64,000 nt of DNA. It comes from Mesostigma viride (taxonomy: Eukaryota > Streptophyta > Mesostigmatophyceae > Mesostigmatales > Mesostigmataceae). The stretch spans positions 60,001 through 124,000 of the forward strand of contig RPFO01000076.1 in NCBI GenBank assembly GCA_009746045.1, written 5' to 3'. Both the position numbers and the translations under genes were made by a program. The notes under the pieces are model-generated. The model searched no databases and had not been told where the DNA came from. It saw only the letters and a list, made by a program, of their open reading frames with translations. Shown here in pieces: positions 28,766 to 52,356 of the stretch. The stretch's first letter is position 1. Every line of letters begins with the position of its first letter.

Positions 28766-28805
28766 TTTCCTCGTCTAATGTATTTCTTTCATTTGCACAT
28801 CAAAC

Positions 28806-31192: not shown

Positions 31193-32347
31193 ATGACCTA
31201 TGGCTGGTCATTAATGACCAACAATGACAATAGATGTTTTATTGCGTATGTTCCTCCGTGTCTTACCAATGAAGTCCGTTACATGTCTATTATAGATTCC
31301 TCTCGGGTCTTTGAAGAAAAGACTCCCTCATACTCTCCTCCTCGTGTGGTTTTCTCCGATGTATCGTATGGGCCCCTCCGAATTATAAGAGTTAAAACAA
31401 ATACTTGTGTCGTTATTTGAAGCAGGTTTAAGGGATCCTAGTAATTCCCCATATTCTAGTAACCAGTGTTTTGCTAGTTCCTCTGTCCAATGGCAAATTT
31501 AGCCTAGTTACAGACTATTGTAAAGTTGATCATGATAATCGCCGTGCAAAATATTACGCAGACATCACTTCCTCATGGCCTAGTATTTTCCTTTCTTGGG
31601 CTGATGCACGTACTGTGATTAATAACCCCTCCGTTTACGTGAGTAGGTATAAGAAGTTTCACCTATTTGAAGAAGCACATCAGTTCTGTCTTTGGTATCA
31701 AAGAGATATTCATCAACAGTTCATGTCTTTGGTGTAGCCAAACCGAAATAGGAATACATCCTCGTCCTGCAGGTCCTCCTCCTACAATTCGTACAGAAGT
31801 TGTTCCTTCTCCATTTCATATCCCTGACAGATTTCTTACTCCTTTACCTTCTCCAACCCGCGAACGGGGTTTCTTCCTCCTCTATGGAGACCCAGGGCTC
31901 TTACTGTGGAATTTGGTTCCTTATCAATCACGGTGACTAGGAAGGAGTGAGCTAAATAGTCCTTTCCTTTCTGCGTGGTTTTTGTTGTCAGCAGACTCCT
32001 GCCCTCGTCTTGCCAGATACATCGAAAATGTTTGTATTAGCTACTAACACTAGTAAGGTAGCCATTGGGGGTGTTCTCCTCCAAGACCAGGGTCATGGCT
32101 TGCAACACATCGAATACATCTCTAGGACTATGTTACCTGCTGAGCGCAACTACCCTGTTCACCAACAAGAGTTGTTGGCTGTGGTATACTGCTGTCATGC
32201 ATGGCAACATTTCCTTTAAGGTGCCCACTTCGATGTCTGTATCAGTGAGCCTTGTGATGCTGACCCTTACCGGTTGGTTATTCAAACCGACCATCGTCCT
32301 CTGATTCACCTCCTGTCACAACCTAAACTCACTCCTCGGCAAGCGCG
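31193..32347 (+). pseudogene. Gypsy-B copy 1 RT and RNase H remnants
   Basis: The RT N-terminal block (PLSNGKFSLVTDYCKVDHD) is present, but the YxDD palm region is deleted. RNase H follows (KMFVLATNTSKVAIGGVLLQ, ISRTMLPAERNYPVHQQELL, VIQTDHRPLIHLLSQPKL) with the first Asp changed to Asn (ATNTS). It ends at PRQAR, where the next LTR starts. Confidence 0.7.
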
Positions 32348-33737
32348 TGTTACGTCGCGTAACTTTTGTTGTTGTTACGGACGTAAATTAGGTCCTTTGT
32401 TGCCTCAGCCATTCCGGAACAGTTCGCTGACTTTCCTAGGCTTACGTGTAGGTAGGACCTTTTGGCCGGTCGGTACCGGGCCTTGTGACGTGGCAATTGT
32501 ACAGTATGGTGGTTCGGTGCAGTCGCGCCGCGCTGCGTACTTTAGTAGTGGTCCTTTTATCCTGCGTGTGAACCTTGTGGACGTGAGTTGGTCCTGTAGG
32601 CGAGGGTCGATGTCGGCCCGAGCATACACGCCTGTCGGCGATCATTTATGCAGCAGAGCTCTGTCCTTCGTGAATTGCACCCGGCGTGTGTTATGAATTA
32701 ACACATATTAGCTAGGGTCATGGCAGTGTAGTATTGTTTCCTTCGTAGTACCCTGGTTTTATTCGGTGTATGGCGTATAATAATAGAATGCATTGAGAAC
32801 AGAGTCGTCACGTCCTAGGTCTTTCCACAACATAGCTCCTCATCACTAGGTACCCTCACTAGTTTAGGTGAAGTCAGGCTAGGCGTTTGGGATAGAGAGG
32901 AGCCAGGGCGTAATGTTCAATGGTAGCGGAGATAGTTGAGGTGGACGCGACGATATTCCCTTCCACTCACCTTATACGCCAGAGGCCTTCCGCGGCCAGG
33001 GCACAGAAGAAGACACCCTCTTGACAGGTAATGGGCGGGTCGCCTGCAAGCTAGCTAGGGGGGTAGTGCTGCCCGATTCGGGACACGCCCTGCCTAGAAG
33101 TTAGACCTGCTCACAGCGGATGAACTCCTCACGTAGCTAGTTTCTTTTCCTTTTCCTTCTGTGTGTGCATTTCCAATTTTCCTTGCTGGGTGCTGTTTGA
33201 CGTTAGTTAGCTAGTGGGTTAGCCGGTTCAGTGGGTTAGCTCCTTTTCTTCCTTTGTATACACGCGTTTCCTTGGAATGTTGTTTGATTACGTTAGCTAG
33301 GATTGACGGTTCAATAGGGCTGGATAGATAGTGGGACGATTAGCGTCTCTTTCGACTACACCTCTTTTCCGTGCATGCTGCTGTGTTTTCTTATATGCTT
33401 CCTCGTGCAGAATCTTGAGCCGGATGTTTATTTACCAACGGGCGCTGGTTTCAGGCGTCCTCGGCATTTCGGTAACATTAAGCTACAATAATGCTTAAGT
33501 GTTTTCCTTTGTTTCCTTTTTATTTTCTCCTTGATCAGATTTTAGATTATTCTTTCCTTTTTCCTTGCTAAAATGGTAGCCACTCCCCTTTGTTTTCTTG
33601 GTCATGCCCTTTTGATCTGATTTTATTTTAGCCTTGGTCAGATTTTTAGTTTATCCTTGACCAGATTTTTATCTTATCCTTGTTCAGCTTTTTAACCTTT
33701 CCTCGTCCAGTGTATTTCTTTCCTTTGCACCTCAAAC

Positions 33738-33951
33738 ATGTCCTCTCAAACGTCTCTTGGTGGGGGTATGTCTCCCATTAACCAACGTTCCTCAGGTGTT
33801 AATCCTAGTGTTAATTCTGGTACTCCTCAATTGGCTATGGGTAACAGACGTGATGCCTTAGACACTGTCCATCACGTGACTCCTCCGCCTCAGAGTGTAC
33901 GTTCTGACAGTACTACCTCTACTCCGTCCTTTCACCGTTCACCTATTACTC
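33738..33951 (+). pseudogene. Gypsy-B copy 2 gag, 5' portion
   Basis: The same MSSQTSLGGG start as copy 1, open up to the insertion site of Gypsy-DNMT. The last four bases, ACTC, are the left target-site duplication. The next 21 bases of this gag reappear at 45120-45140 and the remainder at 52978. Confidence 0.8.
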
Positions 33952-34094
33952 TGTCGCGTCTGCGTGCCACAATCTCCGGCGCCACCATGGCGGCTGGCCA
34001 CTCAGCTTAATTTGGTAAAACCCAAATGAGCTGAGCTGATGTGCCTGCCTTAACTGCATGCCCTGTGGGGTGGGCGAGGACCTGTCCCATGATT
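33952..34094 (-). repeat. 143-bp segment X, outer copy at Gypsy-DNMT 3' end
   Basis: Identical, as far as I can read, to 35233-35375 on the inner side of the 3' LTR-like repeat, but absent next to the 5' repeat. It lies inside the ACTC duplication, so it was inserted together with the element. It contains a short inverted repeat around TTTGGTAAAACCCAAA. Confidence 0.85.
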
Positions 34095-35230
34095 AAAGAA
34101 AGGAGGGCTCTCAGCCGAGGACAAGGAACTGTCCCTCGTGCCTGATAACCACCTTATTGCCTCCCCTGCTATAGAATAATGCTTTCAAAACACATACTTT
34201 GCACAGTCTGATGATGAAGCCGCACATGCGGAGTTTATTGAGAAAGTTAATACAATTACAACACGTTGATAGTCTCAATATCGATGCACTCCATGCTCAC
34301 GAGCCCGCAGTTAGGCAGCGCTCCATGACATGCTACCGGCCTTGCTCCCAAGAAAAGGGAGAAACACGAAGGCCACTAACGAGAGACTCGAAGAGACTAC
34401 ACGCTGCGTGAGAGTCCTCTTCGACTATGAACCAAACCATTCGTCATGCCACACGCATGACACACGCCACACTTGTCAGTCCAGCCAGGAATGCCAAAAC
34501 TATCTTGCTGCCTGAACCATGCGAATAGAAACCGCATTCCAGTTGCCGTCCTGGCTTTCTACCACACATGCCAACAAAAGCAGGAAGGCATCCCGACAAA
34601 TCTAAATTGCTACCCTGTTGCCGATCTCATCTCCTAGAGGCTCCGGCATTTCTGTCCCTGGGAATGTCCGACATTGAGTCACGTCCAGCAAGGTCGAAGC
34701 ATAATATCCTTCAGACAATCTGCACGCTCACACCTTGCGTGTGAGTGGCCCAGCAAACATTGCGTCTAATCGTTCCTTTCTAGAAGAAATCCCTTTTTAG
34801 GGCTGCCAGCGATTTCGCATTCATTCCAGCGATCTGGCTCCGCACCGCAAATTGTCCTTTTCCATTTTCTGTCCAGTCCTCATAACGTTGACCCGCTATT
34901 CTACACCACAAAGACACCTGGCCTGTCAATAGCCTCGGCGCTGTTGAAGTCCAGCAGTCCAGCTTCAGCTCCAGCTGTCCACTAACACGCGTATGATCCT
35001 CTCGACGCTGCACACTTGTGCTGCCGTCCGCTCAAGTCAGTGCTGCGCGCCCAGCTGTGCCTGGCCCGGCGCGCGTGCACGTACACTTTCGTCCGCTCTT
35101 ATGCTGCAAGTGCTAGTGTCCCCCCCGGTCACTAGCCTTTGTCGAAAATGCGTAGAAGACAAATTCCTTGCGCACGTCACCGGTCTTGTGCATAGTGGGC
35201 GCCCGGATGACATAGCGCGCGTCCGTGACA
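34094..35230 (-). repeat. Gypsy-DNMT 3' LTR (main body)
   Basis: 1137 bp matching 43978-45115. The sense start is TGTCACGGACGC and the sense end CCTTTCTTTA. Of the two base differences from the 5' copy, one (TCG versus TCA near 35148) is a CpG to CpA change, as expected from deamination of methylated cytosine. There is no gene in it. Confidence 0.9.
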
Positions 35231-35232
35231 GC

Positions 35233-35401
35233 TGTCGCGTCTGCGTGCCACAATCTCCGGCGCCACCATGGCGGCTGGCCACTCAGCTTAATTTGGTAAA
35301 ACCCAAATGAGCTGAGCTGATGTGCCTGCCTTAACTGCATGCCCTGTGGGGTGGGCGAGGACCTGTCCCATGATTCCCCCCCTCGCTGGCGACCGGCCCC
35401 A
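35233..35401 (-). repeat. inner segment X copy plus polypurine tract
   Basis: The inner 143-bp X (35233-35375) is separated from the LTR body by GC, giving the palindromic junction ACAGCTGT. On its upstream side (35376-35386) the sense strand has a GCGAGGGGGGGAA purine tract, the best polypurine-tract candidate. This suggests X may be the 5' part of the real 3' LTR. Confidence 0.6.
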
Positions 35402-35895
35402 TCACGAAGACAGCGATCGTACCAAGACAAGGGCAGCGGTGACCGCAGTCAAGCTGCGGGAGGTAAACTGCGCAGCGGTGCACACTGGACAAAACCAATC
35501 CCCCTCCGGAATGCTGGTGACCACGGGCTGCAAGCACTGCATGTGCCAACCACAGTTACACTGATCACACAATAACATGGACTCCGCCTGATCGACCCGG
35601 TGACAAACCTGACACTGGGCGTCCTTGACTCGGCGAGATGTGTGCGGTTGGAGGTCGTGGACCAAATTGGCCAGTGAGCAGGGACTGAGATTGCTGAGGT
35701 TGTCTGTCGTACGGCTCCCGTCGGCGCCCTCCAAAATTGCCACTCCCGATGGTTTGATAGCCACAATGCGCAAAATGGTGGGCCCCGCCTCCACATCCAA
35801 AGTGTGCTTCAGCTGAGTGCGCAGGAAAACATACTGCCCTGGCCTAAACCGCAGCTGGCGAGCCATGTATGCGCCCCCCCGGCGCTGAGCGTAAC
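35402..35895 (-). CDS. displaced pol C-terminus of Gypsy-DNMT: integrase C-terminal domain and PHD finger
   Basis: The first 60 residues (FRPGQYVFLR, GPTILRIVAIKPSGVAIL) match the SH3-like integrase C-terminal (GPY/F-type) fold that usually follows the catalytic core in Gypsy elements. Residues 85-129 form a full C4HC3 PHD finger: C85, C88, C100, C103, H108, C111, C126, C129, with the typical LLCDQC, WHMQC and WFCPVC words. The frame continues upstream to the solo-LTR insertion point at 35895, in phase with the main pol frame if that insertion is ignored. PHD fingers commonly read histone H3 tails, so this one may steer integration, as chromodomains do in chromoviruses; that role is inference. 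It has no start codon context of its own. Confidence 0.85.
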
Positions 35896-36324
35896 AGTTG
35901 AATGCCCTTCACCGCTGGCTAGCACGCCGGCGATGGAGACGGGATTTTTGTTGTTTGGGGAACCGATTGTGGGAGGCTGAGCCCGCAGCCGCCACTGATT
36001 GCTATTGAACCCTTGCAGCTGGCCAGGCCGCAAGGAGCTCAGCGGCGCGGCGCTAACCGATAAGGCATGCTCGAGCCTCTAACCCGAGACTACCGGTAGG
36101 CTACCCGATAGTGCATGCTCGAGCCTCTAACCCGAGACTACCGGCACTCAGCGGATCTGTGCTACCGAGGGCGACGGTTCTCTGACCGTCCCGGCGCGCA
36201 CTGGCTTCCGTACCTTGCTTAGGCACCGACTAGCATCTAGACACCAATCTTTGATGCCCACCTGACTAGGCGCCCAGGCCGGCGACTACCGGCCAGCGGA
36301 TAGATGCCACTCGGGAGCACAACT
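35896..36324 (-). mobile_element. solo LTR of the Copia-3 family inside Gypsy-DNMT pol
   Basis: A 429-bp block with AGTTG/CAACT ends, flanked by GTAAC on both sides (35891-35895 and 36325-36329). It is nearly identical to the Copia-3 3' LTR at 7186-7619. It interrupts pol after the integrase catalytic core. Its presence without internal sequence implies LTR-LTR recombination after a full insertion. The strand follows the sense of the Copia-3 LTR. Confidence 0.85.
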
Positions 36325-39300
36325 GTAACGCAGGGAGTCCCTGTGCTGAGCAATGAACAAGTTGTTCATCGCGATGGGCATGACCTTCTTAAAAGTCTCT
36401 GCCCTGGCCAGCACCTCAACCAAAAATTGCTGAGCGTTGTCGAAGGCCATGGGTTCGGGGTGCGCAACCTGTGCCTCCGTAGGCAAAAGAGGATTACGCC
36501 CGAACAGAAGGAAATACGGGGAGAAGGTAGCGAGAGACTCCTGGGGAGACATGCGATAACCCATGGCAATCCATGCCAACTCGCGATCCCACCTGGCCGA
36601 CTCCGGCACCTGCAGGCTCCACTTGCGCAGCGCCTGCTTGACGGTCTGCACCAATCTCTCAGCCAAACCATTGGCCTGAGGATGCTCCCGAGAAGTGCGA
36701 CGGTGATCAATAAGACATCCATCCAGCAACTCCTGGAACTCACCCCTGAACTCACCACCCTGGTCCGTGACTACCTCCGCGGGAGCCCCAAACCTGGTGA
36801 TGATGTCTGCAAAATGCTTCGCTGTGGTAGCGGCATGCTTGTCAGCAATGGGGATCAACTCAACCCATTTGCTAAAGCTCTCCACGCATACCATGACATA
36901 GAGGTTGCCGTCAGGGCTCTCCTGAAACGGCCCGCACAGATCGACGTGCCAGCGATAAAACAAGCCCTTGATGGGAAGCGACATCAGCTCCTTGGCACCA
37001 TGATCTGCGCTAAAGTTAGCCTTGGTTCGAGCACACGGGACACAGCTGGCCACTACCTGGGCCACTGTGTGTCGCATGTTATTCCACCAATAGCTGGTCC
37101 GTACGAGGCTGAGCGTGCGATTGCCACCCAAGTGACCATACCGCTCGTGGTACGCCTGCACTATAGCAACGCGCTTGTCAGGCGGTGGGACGACCACCCT
37201 ACGCTTGCCCAACAGCTTGTACAAAACCCCATCTTCCCAACCATAGGTTGCAGCCCTGTGCTGCACCCTGTTCAACTCCGTCGCCTTCTGAGCAGGAGTC
37301 CAATCGACTGGAGTAGGAGTCAAGACAGCACCCTGCACTTGCTCCAAAACTCGACCATCTAGCCAGATATCAGCGGTGTAGCAATCAGCAAGAGAGCTAC
37401 GCGCTAAGAGAGCCTGCACAGCGATCAGCTGCTGCAGAGAAGGATCAATGTCAAAGGACAGAGACCTACCCTCTTCCATAGCGCACACAGCTTTGGATGG
37501 CGTGAATGGCGACGGCCGCACCGGGTCGTCGCTGATGCCGAAGTCCGCCACAGAGTACTCGACACTGCGCCACCACGCCTCCTCCTCATCGTCGGCCGCA
37601 TACCCAGCAGCGTTCACAAAGACCACAGAACCCGACGAGCCCTCGGCACCCATGGCCCGGGCTCCAGTGTGGTCAACAGTGGTAGGCATGGCGTATCGGG
37701 ATAGCACATCGGCGTTGACATGGTCCTTGCCGGCCCGATGCACAATGGTCATGTGGTACTCCTGGATAATCATGGCCCATCGGGCGAGCTTACCCGTCAG
37801 GTTGGTGTTGGTCATTAGCCACTGAAGCGGCTGGTGGTCTGTCACCAGAGTAAACACGCGCCCAACTAAATACGGGCGAAAGTGCTTGATGGCCCACACC
37901 ACAGCCAGTGCCTCCCCCTCATAGGAAGAATACCGGCTCTCCGCTGGGTTGTTGCTGCGACTAGCATAAGCAATAACGTGCTCGCGCCCATCACCATCCT
38001 TTTGCGCCAAGACCGCACCCAGTCCTACCTTGGACCAGTCGGTATATAACACAAACGGCAAAGCATAGTCAGGGGCGCGCAGAATCGGGGCCGACGTGAG
38101 CTCCTGCTTGATTGTCTCGATGGCGCGTTGCTGTGCGGGACCCCACGCCCACACGCACCCCTTCTTGAGTAACTCGGTCAAGGGCTTCACCTTGCTGCTG
38201 AAGTTCTCAATGTAACCTCGGTAATAGCCAGCCAAACCCAAATACGCCCGCACCCCTGAGACATCCGTGGGTACGGCGGCCTGCACAATGGATTCGACCT
38301 TGGCGGCATCAGGCGTCCGGCCACCCGGCACAATCTGATGACCAAGGAATGAGAGGGTCCGCTGGGCGAACTTGCACTTCTCAGGGTGCAGCCGCATATT
38401 ATGCTCCTCGAGAGCCAAGCGAACCTGCTCCAAGTGCGCCAGGTGCTCCTCAAATGTCGCGCTAAAGACGATTACATCATCAATGTAACAAGCGGCGAAA
38501 GGAAGACCTGCAAGCACTTTGTCCATAGCTCGTTGGAAAACAGCACTAGCGTTGCGGTGCCCAAAGGGCATGCGCACCCACTCATACAAATTGCCGCCCC
38601 CCCAGAATGCAAGCTTCCGCTGATCCTCCGGCGCAACTGCGATCTGATGAAAGCCGCTACGCAGGTCCAGCGAGGACACAAACTTCACATGAGGAGATAT
38701 CTTATCCAGGACATCATCCACACGTGGCATGGGGTAACGGTCCACGGGTGTGTGTGCATTCAGCAACCGCAGATCGGTGGCCATGCGCATACCCGTCCAT
38801 GCCCCGGTGATAGCGTCCTTCTTGGGCGCAACGACAACGGCAGCGGCATAGCTGGAGGAAGATTGCCTGATGATACCGGCATCCTCTAACTCCTTGCATT
38901 GCTCGGCTACAAAATCCAACTCGGCCTGACTCAGGCGATGCTGGCGTCGGAACAAAGGGGTGTCAGTGTCCAATGGAACACGCATGGTCCCACCATTGAA
39001 ACACCCCAGTTCATCACTTGTGAAAGCGAAGGCCCCCCTTGCAGTGCCTAGCCACTTTAGCATGGCTGAGCGCTGCGCATCAGAAAGGTGTTCGCCAATA
39101 GCCCAGGGGTGCGTATCCGCGGGATCACCCACAGCTACCGCATGTGCCTCAAGATGCGGCGCCCTAGCCGCATCGTCGTGGAACAAGGAAAAGGCTGCCA
39201 CGCCTGGTGTGACACCCACCGCCGGAGCCTCGCGTGCCGCACGGTGTATTACCCGATGCAGCGTGGGCTCGCCGGCCAGCACGGTGCTGGTCAGCAGGGC

Positions 39301-41874
39301 GGTCATGAGAATGATAGTCCACACCTGTCGCAGACGCCACCCCCATGCTGATGAAGTCCCCGTCGCTGCAGGGCGCTTCAGTTTGGCTGCGCGCGCCTCA
39401 ACCTGCTGAGGCGGATTGGCTGGGGACGCCCCCCCAGACTGGCGCACGGCAACCGATGCAAGCAGCACATACCCGACCTGCAACACCGACATAGCCTGGC
39501 CTATCAAAGACCAGCGCTCACTCTCGAGCACGCCCGGCAGCGCCGAGGCCCCGACATGAAAACCCATGCTGGCCTCACGAAATTCTGCGGGTGGCTGCAC
39601 CAACAGACCGGTGGTAGTGTCCCAAACGAGACCCTTACCCCGATCACGGTATGCTGTCGACCCTTGGTAACTGACCAGGGTCGGCAGTGCACACATGGGG
39701 CTCCCGACCCGGTTGACGCGTGCATACGGTGGGCGATCCTCGCTATCCACCTTCTGCGTGACTAGGTGGGAAGGCAATGCTACCTCCGCAGACACACTCG
39801 GATGCTGCCTTGCTACGGCCCCCAAGACCGCCTGCACATCGGTCGCACACGCCACGTTGGTCCAATAGGCACGCAAACGATGCGTGAGCCCACCCAGCCC
39901 TGCGTTGTCACACACGATGGGCTCCCCCAGGAGTGCCACGATTGTAGCCCAGTCCTCCCGCACCGCCTGATGTGGGCTGTCACCCGCCACAACGTTCTCA
40001 AACAGATACGCAGGCGGATGGGGCTGACGCGACTGCAACAGTCCCACCACACGCAACAGTTCCCAGAACAGCGCGCTACGCGGATCGGCTAGCCCCCGCC
40101 CTTGCCCTGCCTGGCTCAGGCCCTGGCACTCCCAACCCGCAATTACCAAGTCGATGGCATGATGCCTGCGCAACAACTGCTGCACCTGCACCTCACCGAT
40201 GGCTCGGATATCTTGAGGACATTCCCCAAACGGGTCACGCCATGCTGATGGCGGAAACTGCGCGGGATACTCTCGCGACAACACGCCACAGTGACTGAAG
40301 TACACCTGACGCGCCTTGTGCGATGGCTCTACCGCGATGAGTTTACGGCACACGCCGCCTGCGGCCAAAAAGCCTGCAATGCCCCCTCCGATCCCCGCAA
40401 ACAGTTCCAACACTACCGCACCCTTGGCAAAATCAGGGGCCTGCGGTAAGATTGCAGCAGAAAAATTACCTTGGGCCTCCGAGACACCCGGTTGCAGCAA
40501 AGTGAGGCCATGGCTGGCCATCTGAGGAATGGTGATGACGGCTTCAGTTACCCGCTTGCGCATAGCCAGCTGCCGCGTGGACGTCACAGCATCCAGCGAC
40601 CACTGCGTGCGCATCTTGGCAATGCTCGCCGTTGGCTGGGGCAGCACCGTCCGATGCTTGTCCCACGCCGATGAGCCCGCCGCCCGTACCTCCACCATGC
40701 TGACCTCCACCACGCCCGCAGCCGCGGAAGGGTTGAGGCGTGCAGCCCCGGCTGAAGAACTGAAGCATGAGACCGGCACGCTGGCCCGCTTCAGGCCAGC
40801 CCCATCCCAATCAGGGATGTAAGATGCCTCCTCCGCCCTATAGTCCACCTGAACCATGGCGCGAGCAAGGACATCCACCCCGAGTAGTGCGGAATATCCA
40901 CACTTGTTGACCACCAGCGCATACGCGGACACGGTGGTCATGCTAGAGGCGCGCAACGGATTGAAAATCACGTTGACTTTAACCGCCGTCATAGCGTACG
41001 GCTTACTAGCCGGACCCTGCCAACCTGACACAGACACGGGGCTTTCCACTAAGCCACCGTTCTCGTAGGTCAGGTTCAGCATGGTGGCCAAGTCCGTGCT
41101 GATGACTAGCGGCTGAGCACCGCTATCAAGCTTGACTGCGCCAACCAACGGACATGTCACCATGTCGCTCCATACATCTCCACAGGCTCCAACTGCTTGG
41201 AACGCCATGGACGGCTCACCATTGGGGTATGGAACCACCGTGGGAACCTGGGGGACTGCACTAGTGCGCTGCTGGCTACTTGTGCTGACCACTCCCGCTT
41301 GCACCACGGGCACTGCGGCTTCTACCGGCTGGCGCCCGTAGGTGACGGACTCAGAATTGCGCAAGGTGCGCACATCATGCCCATCTGCGAACAACTGGAT
41401 CTCGGACACAACCGACCCCAGCCACTCAACCCCCTTCTGCCCGAAGGTGTCGACCACCTGCCGTGCTGAAAACATGGGTACGTCCACAATGAACGGCATT
41501 GGGTACACAGGCGCCAATCGCCTACGCTGCTCCAGCCCAGCAGGGTTCGCATGCTCAAAAGCAGATTGCACCCCAGCCAGCGGCATGGAAAAGGACGCGG
41601 GCAACTGCCCGGCAGGCAACATGGGTGCCTGCTGAAAAGAAAGCGGGCTGCGTGCCTGCTTGCCTTTGGTAGCCTCCGCAGCGTTGATCTCGACGTCACC
41701 CGGCATGGGCGCCCAGAATGGGTCCTCCCGGTACACCGTCTCGAATTGGTTGGGGGGCGCCGTCGCCTCCTCACCATGCTTGATGGCAGCCACCTGGGCT
41801 TCCATCGAGTCGGTCTTGCCCGCCATCTCGGCGAAGTGGACCGTCTTGATGCCCGCGGCTGGACACTTGTTCAT
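36286..41874 (-). CDS. Gypsy-DNMT pol: protease, C5 methyltransferase, RT, RNase H, integrase
   Basis: 1862 codons without a stop. Aspartic protease about 245-345 (VKLDSGAQ, D250; LLGVDVL). C5 cytosine methyltransferase about 484-812. A hydrophobic stretch 851-867 (VWTIILMTALLTSTVLA) could span a membrane. RT about 975-1190 (VSSLDLRSGFHQI, D1070; YIDD 1130-1133; FLGHQIVPGG). RNase H (YTDWSKVGLGAVLAQ D1279, E1319, D1346). Integrase zinc finger H1576, H1581, C1611, C1614 and triad D1645, D1704, E1739. The last dozen residues are read from the inserted solo LTR, so the native C-terminus is the separate segment at 35402. The frame is open upstream of the first ATG and contains a zinc knuckle CFLCDKDGHLSREC just 5' of it, so pol is probably made by a -1 shift from gag near 42011-42017. 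Confidence 0.95.
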   Translation of the reverse strand: MNKCPAAGIKTVHFAEMAGKTDSMEAQVAAIKHGEEATAPPNQFETVYREDPFWAPMPGDVEINAAEATKGKQARSPLSFQQAPMLPAGQLPASFSMPLAGVQSAFEHANPAGLEQRRRLAPVYPMPFIVDVPMFSARQVVDTFGQKGVEWLGSVVSEIQLFADGHDVRTLRNSESVTYGRQPVEAAVPVVQAGVVSTSSQQRTSAVPQVPTVVPYPNGEPSMAFQAVGACGDVWSDMVTCPLVGAVKLDSGAQPLVISTDLATMLNLTYENGGLVESPVSVSGWQGPASKPYAMTAVKVNVIFNPLRASSMTTVSAYALVVNKCGYSALLGVDVLARAMVQVDYRAEEASYIPDWDGAGLKRASVPVSCFSSSAGAARLNPSAAAGVVEVSMVEVRAAGSSAWDKHRTVLPQPTASIAKMRTQWSLDAVTSTRQLAMRKRVTEAVITIPQMASHGLTLLQPGVSEAQGNFSAAILPQAPDFAKGAVVLELFAGIGGGIAGFLAAGGVCRKLIAVEPSHKARQVYFSHCGVLSREYPAQFPPSAWRDPFGECPQDIRAIGEVQVQQLLRRHHAIDLVIAGWECQGLSQAGQGRGLADPRSALFWELLRVVGLLQSRQPHPPAYLFENVVAGDSPHQAVREDWATIVALLGEPIVCDNAGLGGLTHRLRAYWTNVACATDVQAVLGAVARQHPSVSAEVALPSHLVTQKVDSEDRPPYARVNRVGSPMCALPTLVSYQGSTAYRDRGKGLVWDTTTGLLVQPPAEFREASMGFHVGASALPGVLESERWSLIGQAMSVLQVGYVLLASVAVRQSGGASPANPPQQVEARAAKLKRPAATGTSSAWGWRLRQVWTIILMTALLTSTVLAGEPTLHRVIHRAAREAPAVGVTPGVAAFSLFHDDAARAPHLEAHAVAVGDPADTHPWAIGEHLSDAQRSAMLKWLGTARGAFAFTSDELGCFNGGTMRVPLDTDTPLFRRQHRLSQAELDFVAEQCKELEDAGIIRQSSSSYAAAVVVAPKKDAITGAWTGMRMATDLRLLNAHTPVDRYPMPRVDDVLDKISPHVKFVSSLDLRSGFHQIAVAPEDQRKLAFWGGGNLYEWVRMPFGHRNASAVFQRAMDKVLAGLPFAACYIDDVIVFSATFEEHLAHLEQVRLALEEHNMRLHPEKCKFAQRTLSFLGHQIVPGGRTPDAAKVESIVQAAVPTDVSGVRAYLGLAGYYRGYIENFSSKVKPLTELLKKGCVWAWGPAQQRAIETIKQELTSAPILRAPDYALPFVLYTDWSKVGLGAVLAQKDGDGREHVIAYASRSNNPAESRYSSYEGEALAVVWAIKHFRPYLVGRVFTLVTDHQPLQWLMTNTNLTGKLARWAMIIQEYHMTIVHRAGKDHVNADVLSRYAMPTTVDHTGARAMGAEGSSGSVVFVNAAGYAADDEEEAWWRSVEYSVADFGISDDPVRPSPFTPSKAVCAMEEGRSLSFDIDPSLQQLIAVQALLARSSLADCYTADIWLDGRVLEQVQGAVLTPTPVDWTPAQKATELNRVQHRAATYGWEDGVLYKLLGKRRVVVPPPDKRVAIVQAYHERYGHLGGNRTLSLVRTSYWWNNMRHTVAQVVASCVPCARTKANFSADHGAKELMSLPIKGLFYRWHVDLCGPFQESPDGNLYVMVCVESFSKWVELIPIADKHAATTAKHFADIITRFGAPAEVVTDQGGEFRGEFQELLDGCLIDHRRTSREHPQANGLAERLVQTVKQALRKWSLQVPESARWDRELAWIAMGYRMSPQESLATFSPYFLLFGRNPLLPTEAQVAHPEPMAFDNAQQFLVEVLARAETFKKVMPIAMNNLFIAQHRDSLRYSCAPEWHLSAGR
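39436..40428 (-). other. C5 cytosine DNA methyltransferase domain within pol
   Basis: Motifs in normal order: I, VVLELFAGIGGG (residues 487-498); IV, AGWECQGLSQAGQGRG with catalytic Cys583; VI, YLFENV with E626-N627; VIII, THRLRAYW (R666, R668); IX/target-recognition end with the MGF word at 770-772; X, ERWSLIGQAMS (786-796). The order is that of ordinary C5 methyltransferases, not circularly permuted. The usual Pro before the catalytic Cys is Glu here (WECQ, not PCQ), and the Gln of the usual QxRxR is not in place. The domain would methylate cytosine in DNA using SAM. Activity is plausible, as the Cys, ENV and RxR residues are kept, but unproven. Confidence 0.92.
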
Positions 41875-43709
41875 CAGGTGCCACTTCGTGTCTGCCCCAT
41901 GCGGCTTCGTGCAGCGGCTTGGACACTCGCGACTAAGGTGCCCATCCTTGTCGCAAAGGAAGCAGCCCGATTTGCGCGCATCCGTCCTAGTACCCGTCTG
42001 TGAGGACGTGCCCCCCCAGCTCGCGTCGGGGCGGCAGCGTCTTTGTTGCCGCCAGCGGCGTTACCCTGGGTTGCATCATGCGATGAGGCGTTGCGAGACC
42101 CCCCTTGGTTCCTGCTAGCACCGTGGCCGCCTTGCGGGCGCGCTTGTCTTGTGGCAGACGACTCACCCGACTTGGCCTTGGTCAGCGCGTCGACCTTGGC
42201 CTGCAGCTCGGCCACCACCGTGCTTACCGAGATCCGGCCTTGCGCGTGTCGTCGCATCATGGCCCTGACCTCAATGCACAGTGACCGCAATCGCCACGGC
42301 TGGCCGTTGGGCGGCGTGGGCAGCTCCATCTCCTTGGAGCCTAGCGCTTGCAGCCATTTCTGACACGCCAGCTTTTCGGACCAGTCCTCCACTTCGCCGG
42401 CGAACTCCATGAGGCGCTCGTAAGATTGCTCCGGGGTTTCACCCTCGGCTATCTTGAAACTGCGCCACTCACGCTCTGCCTTGATGGTCTCCACCGGGTA
42501 TTCCTGGCGAAGGAGGCCCCACAGTTCCTCGGCAGGGTCGACACCATACATGATGTTGTCATAGTCGGGCTGGCCACGCCCGTCGAAGCCGAACCACACG
42601 TCCGTGTGACGCGTGTACAGCGAGACCTCTCTCCACTGCTCCACCAGCCTAGCCACTCGCCTCAGCGTAAGGCCGTGAAAGAAAAAATGCATGTTGTTCA
42701 TCACAAACTCATGCATTACAGCGCCTTGCGTAGTCATGTATTGCAGATCAATCCATGACTTGTACGCGTTGTAGGCCTGCGCCAGCGTGGCCAGATTGCC
42801 GGTTGTGGAGAACTTCTCGCGCATGTCCACCCGTGGTAGGGTGGGCATCTTCGCGCCTTCCGGTATGAGGCGCACCCTTTGCGGGTACTGCACCCCATCG
42901 GCATCCTCCGGCGGTCGCTGAGCTGCGCGTCCCTGCGCCAGCGTGCTTGGTCGTGCTGCCTCCCGTACTCGGAAAGCCAGCGGCGTGGTTATGTCCTCCA
43001 TGGGCGGAATGCGCCCGATTGGCACACTTGACCACCGTGCAGTCGACCCGCCGGTCAGCGCCCCACCGCCTCGCCCAAACGGAATTGAGGCCCCGCCTGG
43101 CAGCATGCGTCCTGGTGCACCCCTGTGTGGGTCCATCGCGCGCGCCAGCCCTGCCCCGTTCTCCTCGTGCAATCCGTCTCGCGCTTGATCGAAAGGCAGG
43201 CGCCTGGGCGCCAGCGTATACTCGCCCCGTGGCTGACCATCCGCCTCACCAAGCAAGTCGTGTTGGGTTAGCGACCCAGCCAAAACCCCCGGTTCCATCG
43301 AAGCCCTTCCCGCCGCATTACCTGAGGTTGGCGGCTGGTCCCGCTCCCTCGGCTCCGCGGCAACACCACTGGGGCCCGGCATCGATGCCTGCCCGTCCCA
43401 TGGTGTGGACTGCAGATGACGACCCTCTACGGCCACCAATCTGTCGGTCACTTCCCGCATCTGCAGCGCCAATTGCTGCTGCAACTGTTGCGACTGTTGC
43501 TGCATCTGCGCTTGCATCTGCGCGAACAGCGCCACCATACTCAGCGGCGCTTCTTGGTCGCGACTCTCACCCACTGCGGGTACGGCGGGAGGAATCCCGC
43601 CATTCGACCCCGGAGCGGACGTGTCGGCATCTGCTCTATTTGCATCTGCCATGGCTCGAGTCTGCGCTCGCGTCAGTGGCATGCACCAGCTGACCGATGG
43701 GCAAAACAA
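41874..43709 (-). CDS. Gypsy-DNMT gag
   Basis: 611 codons; the likely start is the Met of MPLTRAQTR or MADANRAD a few codons in. The N-terminal third has a glutamine-rich coiled coil (LFAQMQAQMQQQSQQLQQQL). The middle is Pro/Arg-rich. The capsid-like helical domain runs from about residue 290 to 500 (TTGNLATLAQAYNAYKSW, WFGFDGRGQPDYDN, EREWRSFKIAEGETPEQS, KLACQKWLQALG), matching the retrotransposon gag pattern. The C-terminus is Gly/Ala-rich. The zinc knuckle is not in this frame but in the -1 (pol) frame. The frames can join at a G7 run (plus-strand C7, 42011-42017), after which the last 45 or so gag-frame residues are probably not native. Confidence 0.85.
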   Translation of the reverse strand: MFCPSVSWCMPLTRAQTRAMADANRADADTSAPGSNGGIPPAVPAVGESRDQEAPLSMVALFAQMQAQMQQQSQQLQQQLALQMREVTDRLVAVEGRHLQSTPWDGQASMPGPSGVAAEPRERDQPPTSGNAAGRASMEPGVLAGSLTQHDLLGEADGQPRGEYTLAPRRLPFDQARDGLHEENGAGLARAMDPHRGAPGRMLPGGASIPFGRGGGALTGGSTARWSSVPIGRIPPMEDITTPLAFRVREAARPSTLAQGRAAQRPPEDADGVQYPQRVRLIPEGAKMPTLPRVDMREKFSTTGNLATLAQAYNAYKSWIDLQYMTTQGAVMHEFVMNNMHFFFHGLTLRRVARLVEQWREVSLYTRHTDVWFGFDGRGQPDYDNIMYGVDPAEELWGLLRQEYPVETIKAEREWRSFKIAEGETPEQSYERLMEFAGEVEDWSEKLACQKWLQALGSKEMELPTPPNGQPWRLRSLCIEVRAMMRRHAQGRISVSTVVAELQAKVDALTKAKSGESSATRQARPQGGHGASRNQGGSRNASSHDATQGNAAGGNKDAAAPTRAGGARPHRRVLGRMRANRAASFATRMGTLVASVQAAARSRMGQTRSGT

Positions 43710-43977
43710 GAACCAACAAGCCTAGGTTTCGCTGAGAAGAAGCAACAACCAAAGGCTTTATAACAGGTGTCAAGGATAACGACTCGACTAGCCTGCCAGA
43801 AAAAGACAAGAGCCAGCAAATTCTGGCTAGTTCTATTTTCTTAAAATCTGTCTCAAGACACTTCCTTTACAAACTGTCAGCCAGGCCGTTCCCTGTACTG
43901 CTGATGGTTGCTAAACACTAAAGCCAACGTCTTGGCTTCGAACAGAAGGAAGCAGACTACCGGGTAGTCTCTTCGAG
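43710..43977 (-). other. Gypsy-DNMT 5' leader
   Basis: 268 bp between the 5' LTR-like repeat and gag. I saw no TGG-starting primer-binding site beside the LTR edge, which is consistent with the odd LTR arrangement noted in the findings. Confidence 0.5.
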
Positions 43978-45115
43978 TAAAGAAAGGAGGGCTCTCAGCC
44001 GAGGACAAGGAACTGTCCCTCGTGCCTGATAACCACCTTATTGCCTCCCCTGCTATAGAATAATGCTTTCAAAACACATACTTTGCACAGTCTGATGATG
44101 AAGCCGCACATGCGGAGTTTATTGAGAAAGTTAATACAATTACAACACGTTGATAGTCTCAATATCGATGCACTCCATGCTCACGAGCCCGCAGTTAGGC
44201 AGCGCTCCATGACATGCTACCGGCCTTGCTCCCAAGGAAAGGGAGAAACACGAAGGCCACTAACGAGAGACTCGAAGAGACTACACGCTGCGTGAGAGTC
44301 CTCTTCGACTATGAACCAAACCATTCGTCATGCCACACGCATGACACACGCCACACTTGTCAGTCCAGCCAGGAATGCCAAAACTATCTTGCTGCCTGAA
44401 CCATGCGAATAGAAACCGCATTCCAGTTGCCGTCCTGGCTTTCTACCACACATGCCAACAAAAGCAGGAAGGCATCCCGACAAATCTAAATTGCTACCCT
44501 GTTGCCGATCTCATCTCCTAGAGGCTCCGGCATTTCTGTCCCTGGGAATGTCCGACATTGAGTCACGTCCAGCAAGGTCGAAGCATAATATCCTTCAGAC
44601 AATCTGCACGCTCACACCTTGCGTGTGAGTGGCCCAGCAAACATTGCGTCTAATCGTTCCTTTCTAGAAGAAATCCCTTTTTAGGGCTGCCAGCGATTTC
44701 GCATTCATTCCAGCGATCTGGCTCCGCACCGCAAATTGTCCTTTTCCATTTTCTGTCCAGTCCTCATAACGTTGACCCGCTATTCTACACCACAAAGACA
44801 CCTGGCCTGTCAATAGCCTCGGCGCTGTTGAAGTCCAGCAGTCCAGCTTCAGCTCCAGCTGTCCACTAACACGCGTATGATCCTCTCGACGCTGCACACT
44901 TGTGCTGCCGTCCGCTCAAGTCAGTGCTGCGCGCCCAGCTGTGCCTGGCCCGGCGCGCGTGCACGTACACTTTCGTCCGCTCTTATGCTGCAAGTGCTAG
45001 TGTCCCCCCCCGGTCACTAGCCTTTGTCAAAAATGCGTAGAAGACAAATTCCTTGCGCACGTCACCGGTCTTGTGCATAGTGGGCGCCCGGATGACATAG
45101 CGCGCGTCCGTGACA
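43978..45115 (-). repeat. Gypsy-DNMT 5' LTR (main body, without X)
   Basis: 1138 bp matching 34094-35230, with one extra C in a C8 tract. Its right end, TGACA, directly abuts the ACTC duplication. It is not accompanied by the 143-bp X found on both sides of the 3' copy. Confidence 0.9.
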
Positions 45116-45145
45116 ACTCCTCCTCCTACGTTTGAGGCACGTACT
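45116..45145 (+). pseudogene. 30-bp Gypsy-B gag islet between two insertions
   Basis: ACTC (duplication of Gypsy-DNMT), 21 bases of Gypsy-B gag (CTCCTCCTACGTTTGAGGCAC shortened by its ends) and GTACT (duplication of Copia-2). Comparison with copy 1 at 29008-29037 shows it is the gag sequence between the two insertion sites. Confidence 0.9.
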
Positions 45146-45761
45146 AGTTGTATGAGAGTGAATGCCACGAATTCCGCCATGGTTCTTGCAGGAAGTTGCC
45201 TTTATTAATAACAGGAAACACAGACGTAAGTCACGTCACTTCCAAGACTGCACGCAGCACAGACGACAGGGTCGCAGTGCCAAGAGAACGTGCACGCAAG
45301 AACTAGCGTCCCGGTGCGACCAAGTCACACATATAGGTTGTTAGGGACGCGTCCAAGTATTCAGCTGCACTGTCACAGCTGAACTGTCAATCAATTGATT
45401 ACACAGACTCTGGCACGCCTTTGGCGCGGAGATCTATCAATTGTCCATACGGCTAGTCCTGTGGACCTATCCGTACACTACTCAGCATCAATTGTCTCAT
45501 AGGTCCTGGCGCGCTACAGCGCGCCTACCTATCAATTGACCATCAAGTCCTGTACAAGTCCTGTCAACGTCCTGCGGACTATCAAAGTGACACTTGTACA
45601 TCCTGTGTCCGTACGCGCCCACAGTGGCGCGCCGGGTACTGTCGGCACAGCCTAGGAAACGTCATAACTTTTACGTTCCTTAACCAAATGAGGCGTTCAA
45701 GGTGCCGTTGGAAAGAGCGTAACAATCTCTATCCATCTAACGTAAATCCTTTACGTTAACT
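45146..45761 (-). repeat. Copia-2 3' LTR
   Basis: 616 bp, ends AGTTGTATG and CGTTAACT, matching the 5' LTR throughout as far as read. The termini are AGTT/AACT, not TG/CA. The body holds several ATCAATTG words and palindromic GGCGCGC pieces. Confidence 0.95.
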
Positions 45762-46711
45762 CCAATCCCTTCTTTTCTTTAGGGATCACATCCCCTGCCA
45801 GGGACCCTTGAAGTAGCTTGAAATGTCCTTCACTCCAGCTTGAAGCTTGAACAGATGTCTTTAATGGCCATTGCCATTCCCCCAGCCTTTTCTTTTAAGG
45901 AACTGGAAAAGAAACAGATCTGCCACAGGGAAAACCATTCCATGAGAAATGGATAAAAACCTATGGAAGTGGCATTACAGAGTACCACCAGATATTAGAA
46001 GCACACAAAATTAAATACATACAGGTTAATTCTATGAGGTCTTCTCCAGGAATTAATCCCATCACCTCGGTAGAGCCTCCAGTACAATGACCTTCTGGCG
46101 GTGAGTTACATTAATCCCAGATACTAATCCCATAAAACCCAGTACATATTCAATATAAGTACAATAAATCCATGACAATTAAAATACCACTTGACAAAGT
46201 AAGGCGTATTACAATAGTTTGCCTGTCATTCTCTCAACAGGGGTCTATTGGCGCCCGTCTTACGGCGCCCGTCTACTTGCCAGATGGTAAACTGCCACAG
46301 CAAACAAATGACAAAATGAAACACATAGGCAACAATTAAATCCTGCCCTGGGGAACTAGGGAAGTCTGAACAGGCAAACACCTGAACAGGCCAGCTTGTA
46401 GAAACATAATACCAGGGAATCGAACCCCGCCCTATAAACCCCAGAATAAAGGTTCCCAGACCATTGTGAGAGGTATGTACAAATATACATTTCTTTTAAA
46501 ATAGAATACATGGTCTGTAATGGACCTGTCAACCTTGTGTAGTCAACAGCATGAACCCCAGCCAAAACCTGGCTGTATCCTGATTAAAATCAGAGTGAGT
46601 GTACCATGGTCCATGAGCCTTAGTACAGACTAAAATACAGGTATTATGCCAGTCACAATGCTGACACTACCACACAATCTGCTCTCCAATGCCCTATAAC
46701 CATGCACCAGC
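45762..46711 (-). other. Copia-2 3' untranslated region with polypurine tract
   Basis: Beside the LTR the sense strand reads AAAGAAAAGAAGGGATTGG, the polypurine tract. Near 46412-46431 the sense strand has GGGCGGGGTTCGATTCCCTG, the same T-arm-like word as in Copia-1. No coding sequence. Confidence 0.7.
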
Positions 46712-47462
46712 TTAGACAGCTTGCTGAGATGGGTCCATCAGAGACTGAAGAACCTTGTATTGCACTGCTGCCTTCTGCACTAGCTTGGTCAAAGCATCAG
46801 CAGGATTGTCAACCCCAGGGATATGCTCAATATTGGCCAAGGAGGACAACTCCTTAAGAAGGAGATAATCCAAGTCCCTACTTCTGGCCATCTGCCTGTG
46901 CACAAACTGCACCATCCCCATGGAGTCTGTTTTTAGAAGAGTGGTAACCTGAAGTGGCCAAGGAGTGTTAGAAGTCATCTGATGAAGCAACTCCTTCAGA
47001 TAAAGGCTTGTGTGAATGCCTTCACAAATAGCCCTGCATTCTGCCACATCACTGCTGACAGCCACCCGTTTGTGCAGGCGACTAAACCAGCTCACCAAAC
47101 TCCCCAGGCCTTCCTGTCTGAGCACAAAGAGCCCTGCAGCCCTGCCCCTGACCTTGGAGACCTGCCTGCTGTCCATTGAGCTATCCACATACAGCTCCAT
47201 GCAAATGGGTTGTGATAAATCCACTGCAGACAACAGAATGCCAGATGAAGCCCTGACCTGATCAGCCACCTTGGCAGACCCTAGCTCCACCAGCATGTCA
47301 TCAGGCAACCTGGCTATGACCATAAGGTCTGGCCTGGAAATGCCTGCCACCCAAGCAACCATGCCCCTCACCATAGGACACAGTGCCTGTGTGATGGTTG
47401 GAGGAAGCTTGCTAATGAGGGTCTCTTGATAATCATTGCCCCCCACCAGCAGCATACGCCAC
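46712..47462 (-). CDS. Copia-2 pol C-terminal part (end of RT, RNase H)
   Basis: Continues pol in the -1 frame: MLLVGGNDYQETL, then the thumb/connection (MVRGMVAWVAGISRPDLMV). RNase H has LYVDSSMDSRQV, DVAECRAI and LLKTDSMG as the three acidic blocks, and the tail has DNPADALTK. It matches Copia-1 block by block. It is separated from the main pol frame by one missing base in the G7 run (plus C7 at 47464-47470). Confidence 0.85.
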
Positions 47463-50196
47463 TCCCCCCCTTCTTCACCAGTGTGGCCTCCATGCCCACA
47501 AACAGCAGAGGCTCATTCTCCACCTGCCATTGCTCCCTACCCAGAGGAAACTTGGACTTAATGATGGAGATCAGCTCCTTAAGCCACGACGTGGGAGCTA
47601 TCAGATGTAGGTCATCCCCGTGCAGCGAAGCATACACTGGTAGGCCTTCCCATTGCCCCAGAAACAGACAGGGGTCTACAGGAGAGACCTTCAAGTTGCA
47701 ATGCTCCTTCAGGAAACGGTTGAGAGTCTCCCTCCAGATTATTGGACTTGACCTCAGGCCCTCCAGGCCCTTGAGGATTTTAAGGAACTCCGTGTGGATG
47801 TCCCTTTTCCATACAGCAGGCACCCTAACATAGAAAGGCGTCTTGCCCTCCCACTTTTCCTGTGCCACATCTGCATCCCCCTCCAGAAATGCCCTCTTGA
47901 AGTCTACCACCACTGAGCCATAGTCCAAGCCCTTGTTGAGAAGGCCTAGAAATACACACAGCAGCAGCCTCCAAGTGTCATGCAACATGCCAGGGGTATA
48001 CAACTCCTCAGCAGTGCACTCACCAGTACCCTTGAACTCATTCAGCACTGGCCTGACATGTGGTACCTTGACCCCGTCCACCTCCTTCATCTTGATGACA
48101 AACTTGAGCTTGAGTAGACGTCGTGCAGGAGGCAGGTCATTGACAGGTTCCACGCATTTCTTGGAGATCCAGTCCTCCCCAGATTTAATCAGACCCAGTG
48201 TGACCTGGGGACACATAATGGGAGAGGACATGAGCTTCACCAGGCCTTGGTAGTTGATAGGGCTGTGTCCAGCAAGTGAGTGAGGACCAATGCCCAAACT
48301 GCTTGGATGACTAGCAGCTGGCAGTATGAGGTCATCAACCAAGGGCTCCTGCCCCTGGCACACTTGCACACGCTTAACCGTCCTGGTTACTGCACGTGAT
48401 AGGTGAGTGGTCCTGAAATTAATCAGTGGGACCTGACCAGCCCCTTCCTTAGTCAGGAGAGAGGACGTGATCACTACCCCATCCTGGCATAGGAAATTCT
48501 GCCCCAGAAGAGCAGGTCCTTGATAGCCCTCCAAGACACAAAAAGCAGTGTCCTGTCCAAGGATAGGAATGAATACCTCACCCAGTACCTTCACGTGTAC
48601 CCCGCCACTGAAGTCAGACACAAACTGATAGCTGGGTTCAGACATGCTGTACCCTGCTGCAGCCCTGGTCCCAATGATGGAAACCTGAGAATTAGTGTCT
48701 ACCTCTAAGGCAGTGTCCAGCCCCAGATTGCCATGCCACCTGAGCTTGGCTACCTTGGGCTGCTTCTTGGCTCTTTGTAGAGCCCCAATCAATCCAGCCA
48801 AACTTGTCCCCCTGGGCTTGGTTAGTGCCTTGGGCTTGACAGTTGACTCCCCAGCTGTTGACCTTGCAGCCTGTTCAACAAGTACCTCTGCAACCTGGCC
48901 AGGGCTGACAGATTCCCCTGCAACAGATGTGGTCGTTGCGTCAGTGATGTCACTTGGGACCTGAAAATCCTGCAGATCCTGTGAGCCTTGTGCCTGACTG
49001 CCCTCATTCATCAGGTTAGGCTTGACATATGACCAACTCAGCCGGTGCACATGCTTTGGTTCGTCCTCCATGCTGACCAAGCATGCGTGGCTAGCTTCAT
49101 CAACCTGGGTAACCACCCCAGGACTCCAGCTACCACGTTTGCCATAAAGGCTAGGTTCCTTCCAAGCTAGGACCTTCTGACCCACTTGTGGCTCCAGCAT
49201 CTTCCAACCCCGGTCCTTCTCCCTCAGCTTGGCAAAGGTGACATGTGCAGCATGTTTCCAGCCCTCCAGCACATGTGGTGGGCACAGGCCATGATATAGA
49301 CCCATTGGGCTGACAGCAACTCCATCATAGTAGAAGTTAACCCTGCTGTTCAGCTGCTGCTCCACGTTCCTCAGCCATGCACTCCTGACAAGTGCAGGTG
49401 CAGACAAGGGTACCCAGTCTTCAGAGATGATCAATTTCTTGACCTCCTGGATTGCCCTCTCGATAGCACCCTGCTGCCCATGAGCCTCCCTAGGTGTAAC
49501 CAGCAACTCAGGAAGGGTAGGATCACCCTTGAGATGCTGAAACTGCATGTCCACCTGGATCCTTGTGGTAGGAAACTTGGCTCTTACATTCTGCAGGGCA
49601 GCCAGCAAGTACCTGTTCTTCATAGAAGGTAAATGCTCTAGCACCTTGTATTTCGTGTACCTGTCCACGCACACCAACAGTTGCATGCCCCTGATGTGTT
49701 GGATATCACACTGCAGATCACCAATGCTCTGAGGTAGAGCTTTGGCATGTGATTTCCTGGGCTTGTTGGAGGACAACTGGCACTTACACCGTGAGGCAGC
49801 TTGCTGACACGCCTTAAGAAGGGGTGCCCTGCCCATACGGAAGGCAAAGTTGTTTGACAGAGAAGTGGCATGCCCAAACATGTTGTGGATTCGGGCACCC
49901 AACTCCTGGTACACAGAGGAAGCAGTCCCTGGCACAGTCAGGACTGTGCTGTCAGGTTGTCCAGCATCACCATGCTGACTTCCATCCTGTTCTGACTCAG
50001 AGCCTGAGTCACCCTGCTCATGCCCAACACCTGGACCGCCAGCAGGGACCACATGCATACCACCAGAGGCCTTCACACCCCTCTGTGGTTGTACATTGGT
50101 TTCTCTCAAAATGAGAGGTCCACCCTCGTGCCCAGCACGAGGATGCATGGGGTCAGACATTCTTACAGCTGCATCAGCTGTCAAGGACGTCTTCAT
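47463..50196 (-). CDS. Copia-2 pol main part: integrase, protease-like, RT
   Basis: Integrase about 95-390: zinc-like region (H104, H109, C130, C137, C139), triad D164, D216, E246 with HGQQGAIERA, and C-terminal domain VLAWKEPSLYGKRGSW. Protease-like domain about 490-575: LEVDTNSQVSIIG with D500, later ALLGQNFL. RT about 690-900: HVRPVLNEF, VVVDFKRAFLEGD, LRSSPIIW and YASLHGDDLHL (D861, D862). So the order integrase-protease-RT and the DTN motif are as in Copia-1. The main frame ends with a junk tail beyond the G7 frameshift. The pol frame is preceded by a TAA near 50307, and it is not in phase with gag. Confidence 0.88.
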
Positions 50197-52332: not shown

Positions 52333-52356
52333 ATTTGGAACGAGGCGTGTAATACG

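What the first reader, a model, noticed from the sequence alone, without database searches (positions are those of the whole stretch)
39436..40428. Cytosine DNA methyltransferase embedded in a Gypsy polyprotein between protease and RT
Motifs I, IV, VI, VIII, IX and X of C5 methyltransferases are all in one unbroken pol frame, upstream of RT, RNase H and integrase. Retrotransposons carrying cytosine methyltransferases have been described in Symbiodinium and Klebsormidium, so the concept is known. This domain position and the green-algal host may make it a separate acquisition. An element that methylates its own or neighbouring copies could control its own silencing.
Basis: partly seen in the sequence, partly recalled or inferred. 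Interest (0 to 1): 0.95.

Follow-up and report, generated by a model that had tools for sequence, protein, structure and literature searches.

The report
Gypsy element carrying DNA methyltransferase
A jumping gene in a probably algal genome carries its own DNA-methylating enzyme and a chromatin-reading finger, and its repeats are arranged as if it inserted itself from a circle rather than a line; carrying the methyltransferase is already a known trick, the insertion route would be the new part.

Summary
A C5-cytosine methyltransferase (pol residues 545-870, window 39451-40428, minus) lies in one open pol frame between a (weakly scored) aspartic protease and RT-RNaseH-integrase of an 11,164-bp Ty3/Gypsy element (33952-45115) with TG..CA ends, a 4-bp target duplication and a paralogous empty site. 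Its A repeats differ at three places in about 1,137 bp, so it is young. A 429-bp solo-LTR-like insertion has since broken the integrase C-terminus; beyond it lies a PHD finger. The concept is published: KnitGypsy-Dnmt3 of Klebsormidium nitens (PMC5890265) has a Dnmt3 in a Gypsy pol and the same DIRS-like repeat order. I could not name the host or search for other copies, so this may be that family.

Added here: a 15-nt self-primer/PBS match and a polypurine tract define the reverse-transcription LTR as B+A, yet the integrated ends lie at the internal B|A palindrome (CA-GC-TG), and A2|B2 is a blunt joint of the two implied cDNA ends. The copy looks like a two-LTR circle opened at B|A. Methyltransferase activity is untested; the Pro before the catalytic Cys is Glu, and a tree did not resolve its origin.

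The parts
33948..33951 (.). target-site duplication ACTC, left
   Evidence: matches 45116-45119; paralogous empty site at 28985-29035
33952..34094 (-). repeat B2, outer end (TGTCGC.. on + strand)
   Evidence: identical to B1 over 143 bp
34095..35230 (-). repeat A2
   Evidence: three differences from A1 inside the repeat (two substitutions, one 1-nt indel)
35227..35236 (.). B1|A2 junction palindrome GACAGCTGTC (CA-GC-TG), inferred integrase attachment site
   Evidence: its two halves are the ends of the integrated element
35233..35375 (-). repeat B1
35376..35384 (-). polypurine tract GAGGGGGGG directly before B1
35402..35890 (-). far-side ORF: GPY/F-like integrase C-terminus (by eye) and PHD finger (about 35480-35614)
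   Evidence: PHD PF00628 E 4.4e-10; PDB BAZ2B PHD 3.8e-15; ORF
35896..36324 (-). 429-bp solo-LTR-like insertion (AGTT..AACT, 5-bp TSD GTTAC) that interrupts the integrase C-terminus; second copy at 7186-7619
36286..42060 (-). pol ORF: CCHC, protease, C5 methyltransferase, RT, RNase H, integrase
39451..40428 (-). C5-cytosine methyltransferase domain, motifs I to X in canonical order
38332..38826 (-). reverse transcriptase (YIDD present)
   Evidence: RVT_1; motif
36658..36957 (-). integrase core (D1707, D1766, E1801; 34 residues between the last two)
   Evidence: rve residues 1702-1794; motif positions
41874..43721 (-). gag-like ORF; pol lies in the -1 frame relative to it, 187-nt overlap
   Evidence: no Pfam match
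43964..43978 (-). primer-binding site ACTCGAAGAGACTAC, directly after A1
   Evidence: exact complement of 44270-44284
44270..44284 (-). self-primer GTAGTCTCTTCGAGT inside A1 (also in A2 at 34386-34400)
   Evidence: 0 of 2000 resampled A1 sequences and 0 of 292 control windows reach 15 nt
43979..45115 (-). repeat A1, outer end TGTCAC..
45116..45119 (.). target-site duplication ACTC, right

Best explanation
A Ty3/Gypsy retrotransposon of the KnitGypsy-Dnmt3 kind. SHOWN in sequence: pol carries a C5 methyltransferase between protease and RT, and a PHD finger lies behind the integrase; the genomic order is A-coding-B-A-B with a 4-bp TSD. INFERRED from the junctions: the RNA starts in A, its 5' end primes minus strand at the PBS next to A, plus strand starts at the polypurine tract next to B, and the linear cDNA is BA-coding-BA. 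Its ends (AATC.. and ..CTTT) lack TG/CA, are joined blunt to a two-LTR circle (the A2|B2 joint), and the integrase cuts the circle at the B|A palindrome CA-GC-TG, leaving 2-nt 5' overhangs, and inserts it. INFERRED, weaker: the methyltransferase marks the element's own double-stranded DNA, most likely this circle, before or at insertion, and the PHD finger steers the integrase to chromatin. This copy moved recently and was later disabled by a solo-LTR-like insertion.
For: Domains. Repeats A and B. TSD, TG..CA ends and empty site in the paralogous element. Self-primer/PBS: 15-nt exact complement at offset 0 from A1; 0 of 2000 resamplings (longest 13) and 0 of 292 internal control windows (longest 12) reach it. 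Polypurine tract directly before B1. The A2|B2 joint equals the last base before the PBS joined to the first base after the polypurine tract, to within one shared A. B1 and B2 are identical; A1 and A2 differ at three places. Foamy virus integrase cleaves the LTR-LTR palindrome of two-LTR circles in vitro (passages of PMC1180852). Purifying selection on the DNMT of K. nitens copies and the same repeat layout are reported (section 9).
Against: One copy only; the own-genome search did not complete, so regularity of the structure in the family was not tested here. In retroviruses linear DNA, not the circle, was shown to be active for integration (passages of PMC11054761). The Pro before the catalytic Cys is Glu (Pro in all 156 of 186 relatives that my pattern matched; 30 not matched, not examined) and motif X Asn is Gln, so the enzyme could be weak or dead. 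CpG o/e of the element is 0.85, higher than in the other repeats measured (0.47-0.61) and like two flanking stretches (0.82, 0.84), so there is no deamination trace of self-methylation. The internal region holds 5 G7 runs, of which the tract before B1 is one, so the polypurine tract alone is weak.
Confidence: 0.6

Rival explanations
1. Same element, but the split repeats arise by a DIRS/PAT-like route in which an internal B-A region templates the joining of the cDNA ends into a circle; the Gypsy integrase then opens it. The methyltransferase role is the same.
For: The order A-coding-B-A-B is the DIRS order (figure legends in PMC5890265).
Against: It gives no reason for a PBS at offset 0 from A1 and a polypurine tract directly before B1, both of which were found. 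No tyrosine recombinase was found in the gag, pol and far-side ORFs scanned.
Confidence: 0.2
2. The permuted structure is an accident of this one insertion (a rare capture of a two-LTR circle); the family normally integrates linear DNA.
For: Only one copy was seen here; for retroviruses linear DNA is the active form.
Against: The linear ends implied by PBS and polypurine tract have no TG/CA, whereas the B|A site has both with a 2-nt spacer. The K. nitens family is drawn with the same repeat layout (legend).
Confidence: 0.15
3. The methyltransferase is inactive cargo or acts on RNA or on host DNA, and gives the element no self-methylation.
For: Glu in place of Pro before the catalytic Cys and Gln for Asn in motif X; no CpG depletion of the element; the K. 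nitens domain showed no activity in yeast, which its authors call inconclusive.
Against: Cys, ENV Glu and RxR arginines are kept in an open frame; purifying selection reported for the K. nitens domains; SymbioDIRS domains methylate CG in yeast.
Confidence: 0.3

Closest known systems
KnitGypsy-Dnmt3 (Klebsormidium nitens, PMC5890265; Results sections 6, 7, 9, 10 and the Discussion read, other passages by word search; figures and supplements not seen)
   Same: Cytosine methyltransferase within the Pol ORF of a Gypsy element, intronless, unrearranged domain; repeats in DIRS order A-coding-B-A-B
   Different: Position within Pol, a TSD of this element, priming sites and a PHD finger are not mentioned in the text read (main text: 'PHD' 0 hits, 'self-prim' 0 hits); host and sequence identity could not be compared
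SymbioDIRS-Dnmt3 and SymbioLINE-Dnmt (Symbiodinium, same paper)
   Same: Retrotransposon-borne DNMT; DIRS-order repeats in SymbioDIRS
   Different: Tyrosine recombinase or LINE endonuclease there; integrase core of the rve type here
Foamy virus integrase on two-LTR circles (PMC1180852, passages)
   Same: Palindromic junction as integrase substrate, 2-nt loss
   Different: There the junction forms from joined LTR ends; here it is built into the LTR at B|A and the joined ends lie elsewhere
Tf1 self-priming LTR retrotransposon (recalled, no call)
   Same: 5' part of the RNA pairs with a PBS directly after the LTR
   Different: No DNMT and ordinary LTR order there
Chromoviruses (abstract starts in search listing)
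   Same: Chromatin reader at the integrase C-terminus
   Different: Chromodomain there, PHD finger here

Membership tests
C5-cytosine DNA methyltransferase | PF00145 match above curated cut-off | tested here: met
   42.3 bits against cut-off 22
C5-cytosine DNA methyltransferase | Pro-Cys motif IV, ENV, RxR, motif X | tested here: inconclusive
   Cys, ENV and RxR present; Pro is Glu and motif X Asn is Gln
DNMT3/DRM clade | groups with eukaryotic DNMT3/DRM in a tree | tested here: inconclusive
   50-row tree (first 150 residues of the domain): window row on a branch of 3.06, in no well-supported set; grouping with DNMT3A, NtDRM and AtDRM2 not rejected (p-AU 0.302)
DNMT3/DRM clade | fold nearest to DNMT3 | tested here: inconclusive
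Ty3/Gypsy | order RT-RNaseH-IN with rve core | tested here: met
Ty3/Gypsy | TG..CA ends and short TSD | tested here: met
   ACTC, 4 bp, with empty site
Ty3/Gypsy | two identical LTRs at the ends, between PBS and PPT | tested here: not met
   repeats are A-coding-B-A-B
DIRS-like | split direct repeats | tested here: met
DIRS-like | tyrosine recombinase | tested here: not met
   Pfam on the gag, pol and far-side ORFs gives an rve integrase and no recombinase
DIRS-like | no target-site duplication (recalled) | tested here: not met
   4-bp TSD
KnitGypsy-Dnmt3 | cytosine methyltransferase in a Gypsy pol with DIRS-order repeats | tested here: met
   against section 9 of PMC5890265
KnitGypsy-Dnmt3 | sequence relationship of RT and DNMT to the K. 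nitens copies | not testable with these tools
   no eukaryote collection offered; the genome search unanswered in all 11 calls
Self-priming (Tf1-like) | RNA 5' segment complementary to the PBS next to the LTR | tested here: inconclusive
   15-nt exact complement at offset 0, but that it lies at the RNA 5' end is assumed, not mapped

The most novel reading that the evidence does not exclude
A Gypsy element whose LTR carries a built-in circle junction: reverse transcription makes BA-coding-BA, the ends are joined to a two-LTR circle, and a DDE integrase uses the internal B|A palindrome as its attachment site. The CpG-rich attachment site (by eye) and a nuclear circle would give the element's own methyltransferase a substrate, so that methylation could protect the circle or license its insertion, with the PHD finger choosing the place.
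Probability: 0.35. Interest if true: 0.85.

Novelty: new member of a known kind. Interest (0 to 1): 0.58.

Why it matters
Retroelements that carry a DNA methyltransferase are known, but its role is unclear. This copy gives a nucleotide-level record of how such an element integrates. If sister copies agree, it would be a natural case of integration from a two-LTR circle, a route claimed for a retrovirus in 1984 and then set aside in favour of linear DNA (PMC11054761, passages). It would also explain why a Gypsy element can have DIRS-like repeats. A writer (methyltransferase) and a reader (PHD finger) in one retrotransposon bears on how elements deal with host silencing.

Tried and rejected
Chance match of the methyltransferase: rejected. 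Chance repeats: rejected (junctions, TSD, empty site). Host identification: TRM112 at 22815-23207 shows a eukaryote; its resemblance to green-plant TRM112 is recalled, not tested; species not found. Relatives of the methyltransferase: tblastn found 303 of 50,697 phage records and 32 of 72,556 plasmid records, none covering 80% of the query. I did not look for RT genes beside these. Origin tree: unresolved. CpG depletion as a trace of self-methylation: not seen. A -1 slippery heptamer (triplet followed by an A or T triplet) in the gag/pol overlap: the script listed none; a G-run lies there. RNA fold after A1: z -1.18, not special. The first self-primer test used an A1 end two bases off (13 nt, reached by 2 of 300 resamplings, 0 of 77 windows); redone with the right end. 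Among the 50 rows shown no DRM chain appears; that excludes nothing.

Papers: ten searches. 'KnitGypsy' is held in one paper only. Besides it, passages of PMC6338049 and PMC12344493 (a 2025 survey that names LTR Copia and DIRS as the carriers) mention retrotransposon-borne cytosine methyltransferases and cite the 2018 work. For a Gypsy element with split repeats I saw the listings (8 of 8; 7 of 7), for a PHD finger on a Gypsy integrase that (12 of 140 listed); no title there names either, but the papers were not read (apart from PMC5890265) and most subscription journals are missing.

Full report
OBSERVATION. The pol ORF at 36286-42060 on the minus strand is 1924 codons from stop to stop. Pfam places, in order, a weak zinc knuckle, a weak aspartic protease, a C5 DNA methylase (residues 550-690, E 8.5e-11, 42.3 bits against a cut-off of 22), RT, RNase H, the H2C2 finger and the rve integrase core. 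It also matches TIGR00675 (6.7e-12, below its curated cut-off) and PHROG 116 (4.7e-18). Motifs run I, IV, VI, VIII, X without the rearrangement of plant DRM.

THE ELEMENT. The element runs from 33952 to 45115 with TG..CA ends and ACTC on both sides. It sits in an older repeated element of which a second copy, lacking it, is in the window: the joined flanks and the empty site (28985-29035) differ by one base near the duplication. On the coding strand the order is A1 (1137 bp), PBS, gag, pol, B1 (143 bp), GC, A2, B2. B1 and B2 are identical; A1 and A2 differ by two substitutions and one 1-nt indel inside the repeat, so the insertion is young. This order is the DIRS order (legends in PMC5890265), but the integrase core is of the rve type and a 4-bp duplication is present, unlike DIRS elements (the latter trait recalled).

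HOW IT REPLICATES. Directly after A1 stands ACTCGAAGAGACTAC, whose exact complement lies inside A at position 832; no control reached 15 nt (0 of 2000 resamplings, 0 of 292 windows). This is the layout of self-priming elements such as Tf1 (recalled). AATAAA follows at about position 993 of A. Directly before B1 stands GAGGGGGGG, one of 5 G7 runs in the internal region. By standard reverse transcription the LTR is therefore B+A and the cDNA is BA-coding-BA. The integrated copy is the same sequence moved round by one B, and its A2|B2 joint is the last base before the PBS next to the first base after the polypurine tract (one A is shared by both boundaries). The integrated ends are the two halves of the B1|A2 site GCGACA-GC-TGTCAC. 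The simplest account is a two-LTR circle opened by the integrase at B|A, 3' of CA on both strands, which leaves the usual 2-nt overhangs. Foamy virus integrase does this to its LTR-LTR palindrome in vitro (passages of PMC1180852); for retroviruses in general linear DNA is the accepted precursor (passages of PMC11054761). The single copy is the main weakness.

A BROKEN END AND A READER DOMAIN. The pol ORF ends inside a 429-bp insertion (35896-36324) with AGTT..AACT ends and a GTTAC duplication; a 98% copy lies at 7186-7619 without a matching duplication. Two other LTR elements in the window have AGTT..AACT ends and 5-bp duplications (read by eye), so the insertion looks like a solo LTR. Beyond it, an ORF (35402-35890) shows a GPY/F-like stretch by eye and a PHD finger (PF00628, 4.4e-10; BAZ2B PHD 3.8e-15, ATXR5 PHD 1.1e-12). 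Several of those PHD fingers read the unmodified H3 tail (recalled). The element thus coded for a methylation writer and a chromatin reader, and this copy is now probably disabled.

WHAT THE METHYLTRANSFERASE DOES. The best guess is methylation of the element's own double-stranded DNA before or at insertion. de Mendoza and colleagues proposed cDNA methylation for the DIRS kind, showed CG methylation by SymbioDIRS domains in yeast, and saw none with the K. nitens domain in an assay they call inconclusive (sections 10 and 11). A circular nuclear intermediate would be a natural substrate. The element's CpG content is not depleted (o/e 0.85 against 0.47-0.61 in the four other repeat stretches measured, and 0.58, 0.84 and 0.82 in three further stretches), which gives no support for self-methylation but is also expected for a young copy.

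COMPARISON AND VERDICT. KnitGypsy-Dnmt3 shares the two defining traits (section 9). Neither host nor sequence identity could be tested, because the genome search did not complete (11 calls) and no eukaryote collection is at hand. Window GC is 0.524. I file it as a new, possibly identical, member of that kind, and put the new value in the permuted LTR and the PHD finger, which the main text of that paper does not discuss ('PHD' 0 hits; supplements and figures not seen).

Noticed in passing
22815-23207 (-): Single-ORF TRM112 gene (Pfam 3.7e-8; PDB TRM112-like protein 3.7e-31), the only clear host gene among the ORFs scanned; the host is a eukaryote.
   Followed up: partly
10833-18864 and 45146-52972: Two related LTR elements, Copia-like on weak evidence (RVT_2 below its cut-off in the second), with AGTT..AACT ends rather than TG..CA and 5-bp duplications (GGCAC, GTACT; by eye). 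The second inserted about 30 bp from the Gypsy element, in the same older repeat.
   Followed up: partly
27264-33951 and 52973-56623: Older nested repeat element with about 1.7-kb repeats that holds both insertions; not classified.
   Followed up: no
6395-6880 (-): Another PHD-like finger (PF00628 E 8.4e-5, just below cut-off) close to the second copy of the 429-bp insertion.
   Followed up: no
39271-39321 (-): Hydrophobic, membrane-like stretch (pol residues 914-930) between the methyltransferase and RT.
   Followed up: no
36052-36144: Two tandem 45-bp repeats inside the 429-bp insertion.
   Followed up: no
58872-59254: 77-bp inverted repeat, 99% complementary, 229 nt apart, perhaps a small DNA transposon.
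   Followed up: no
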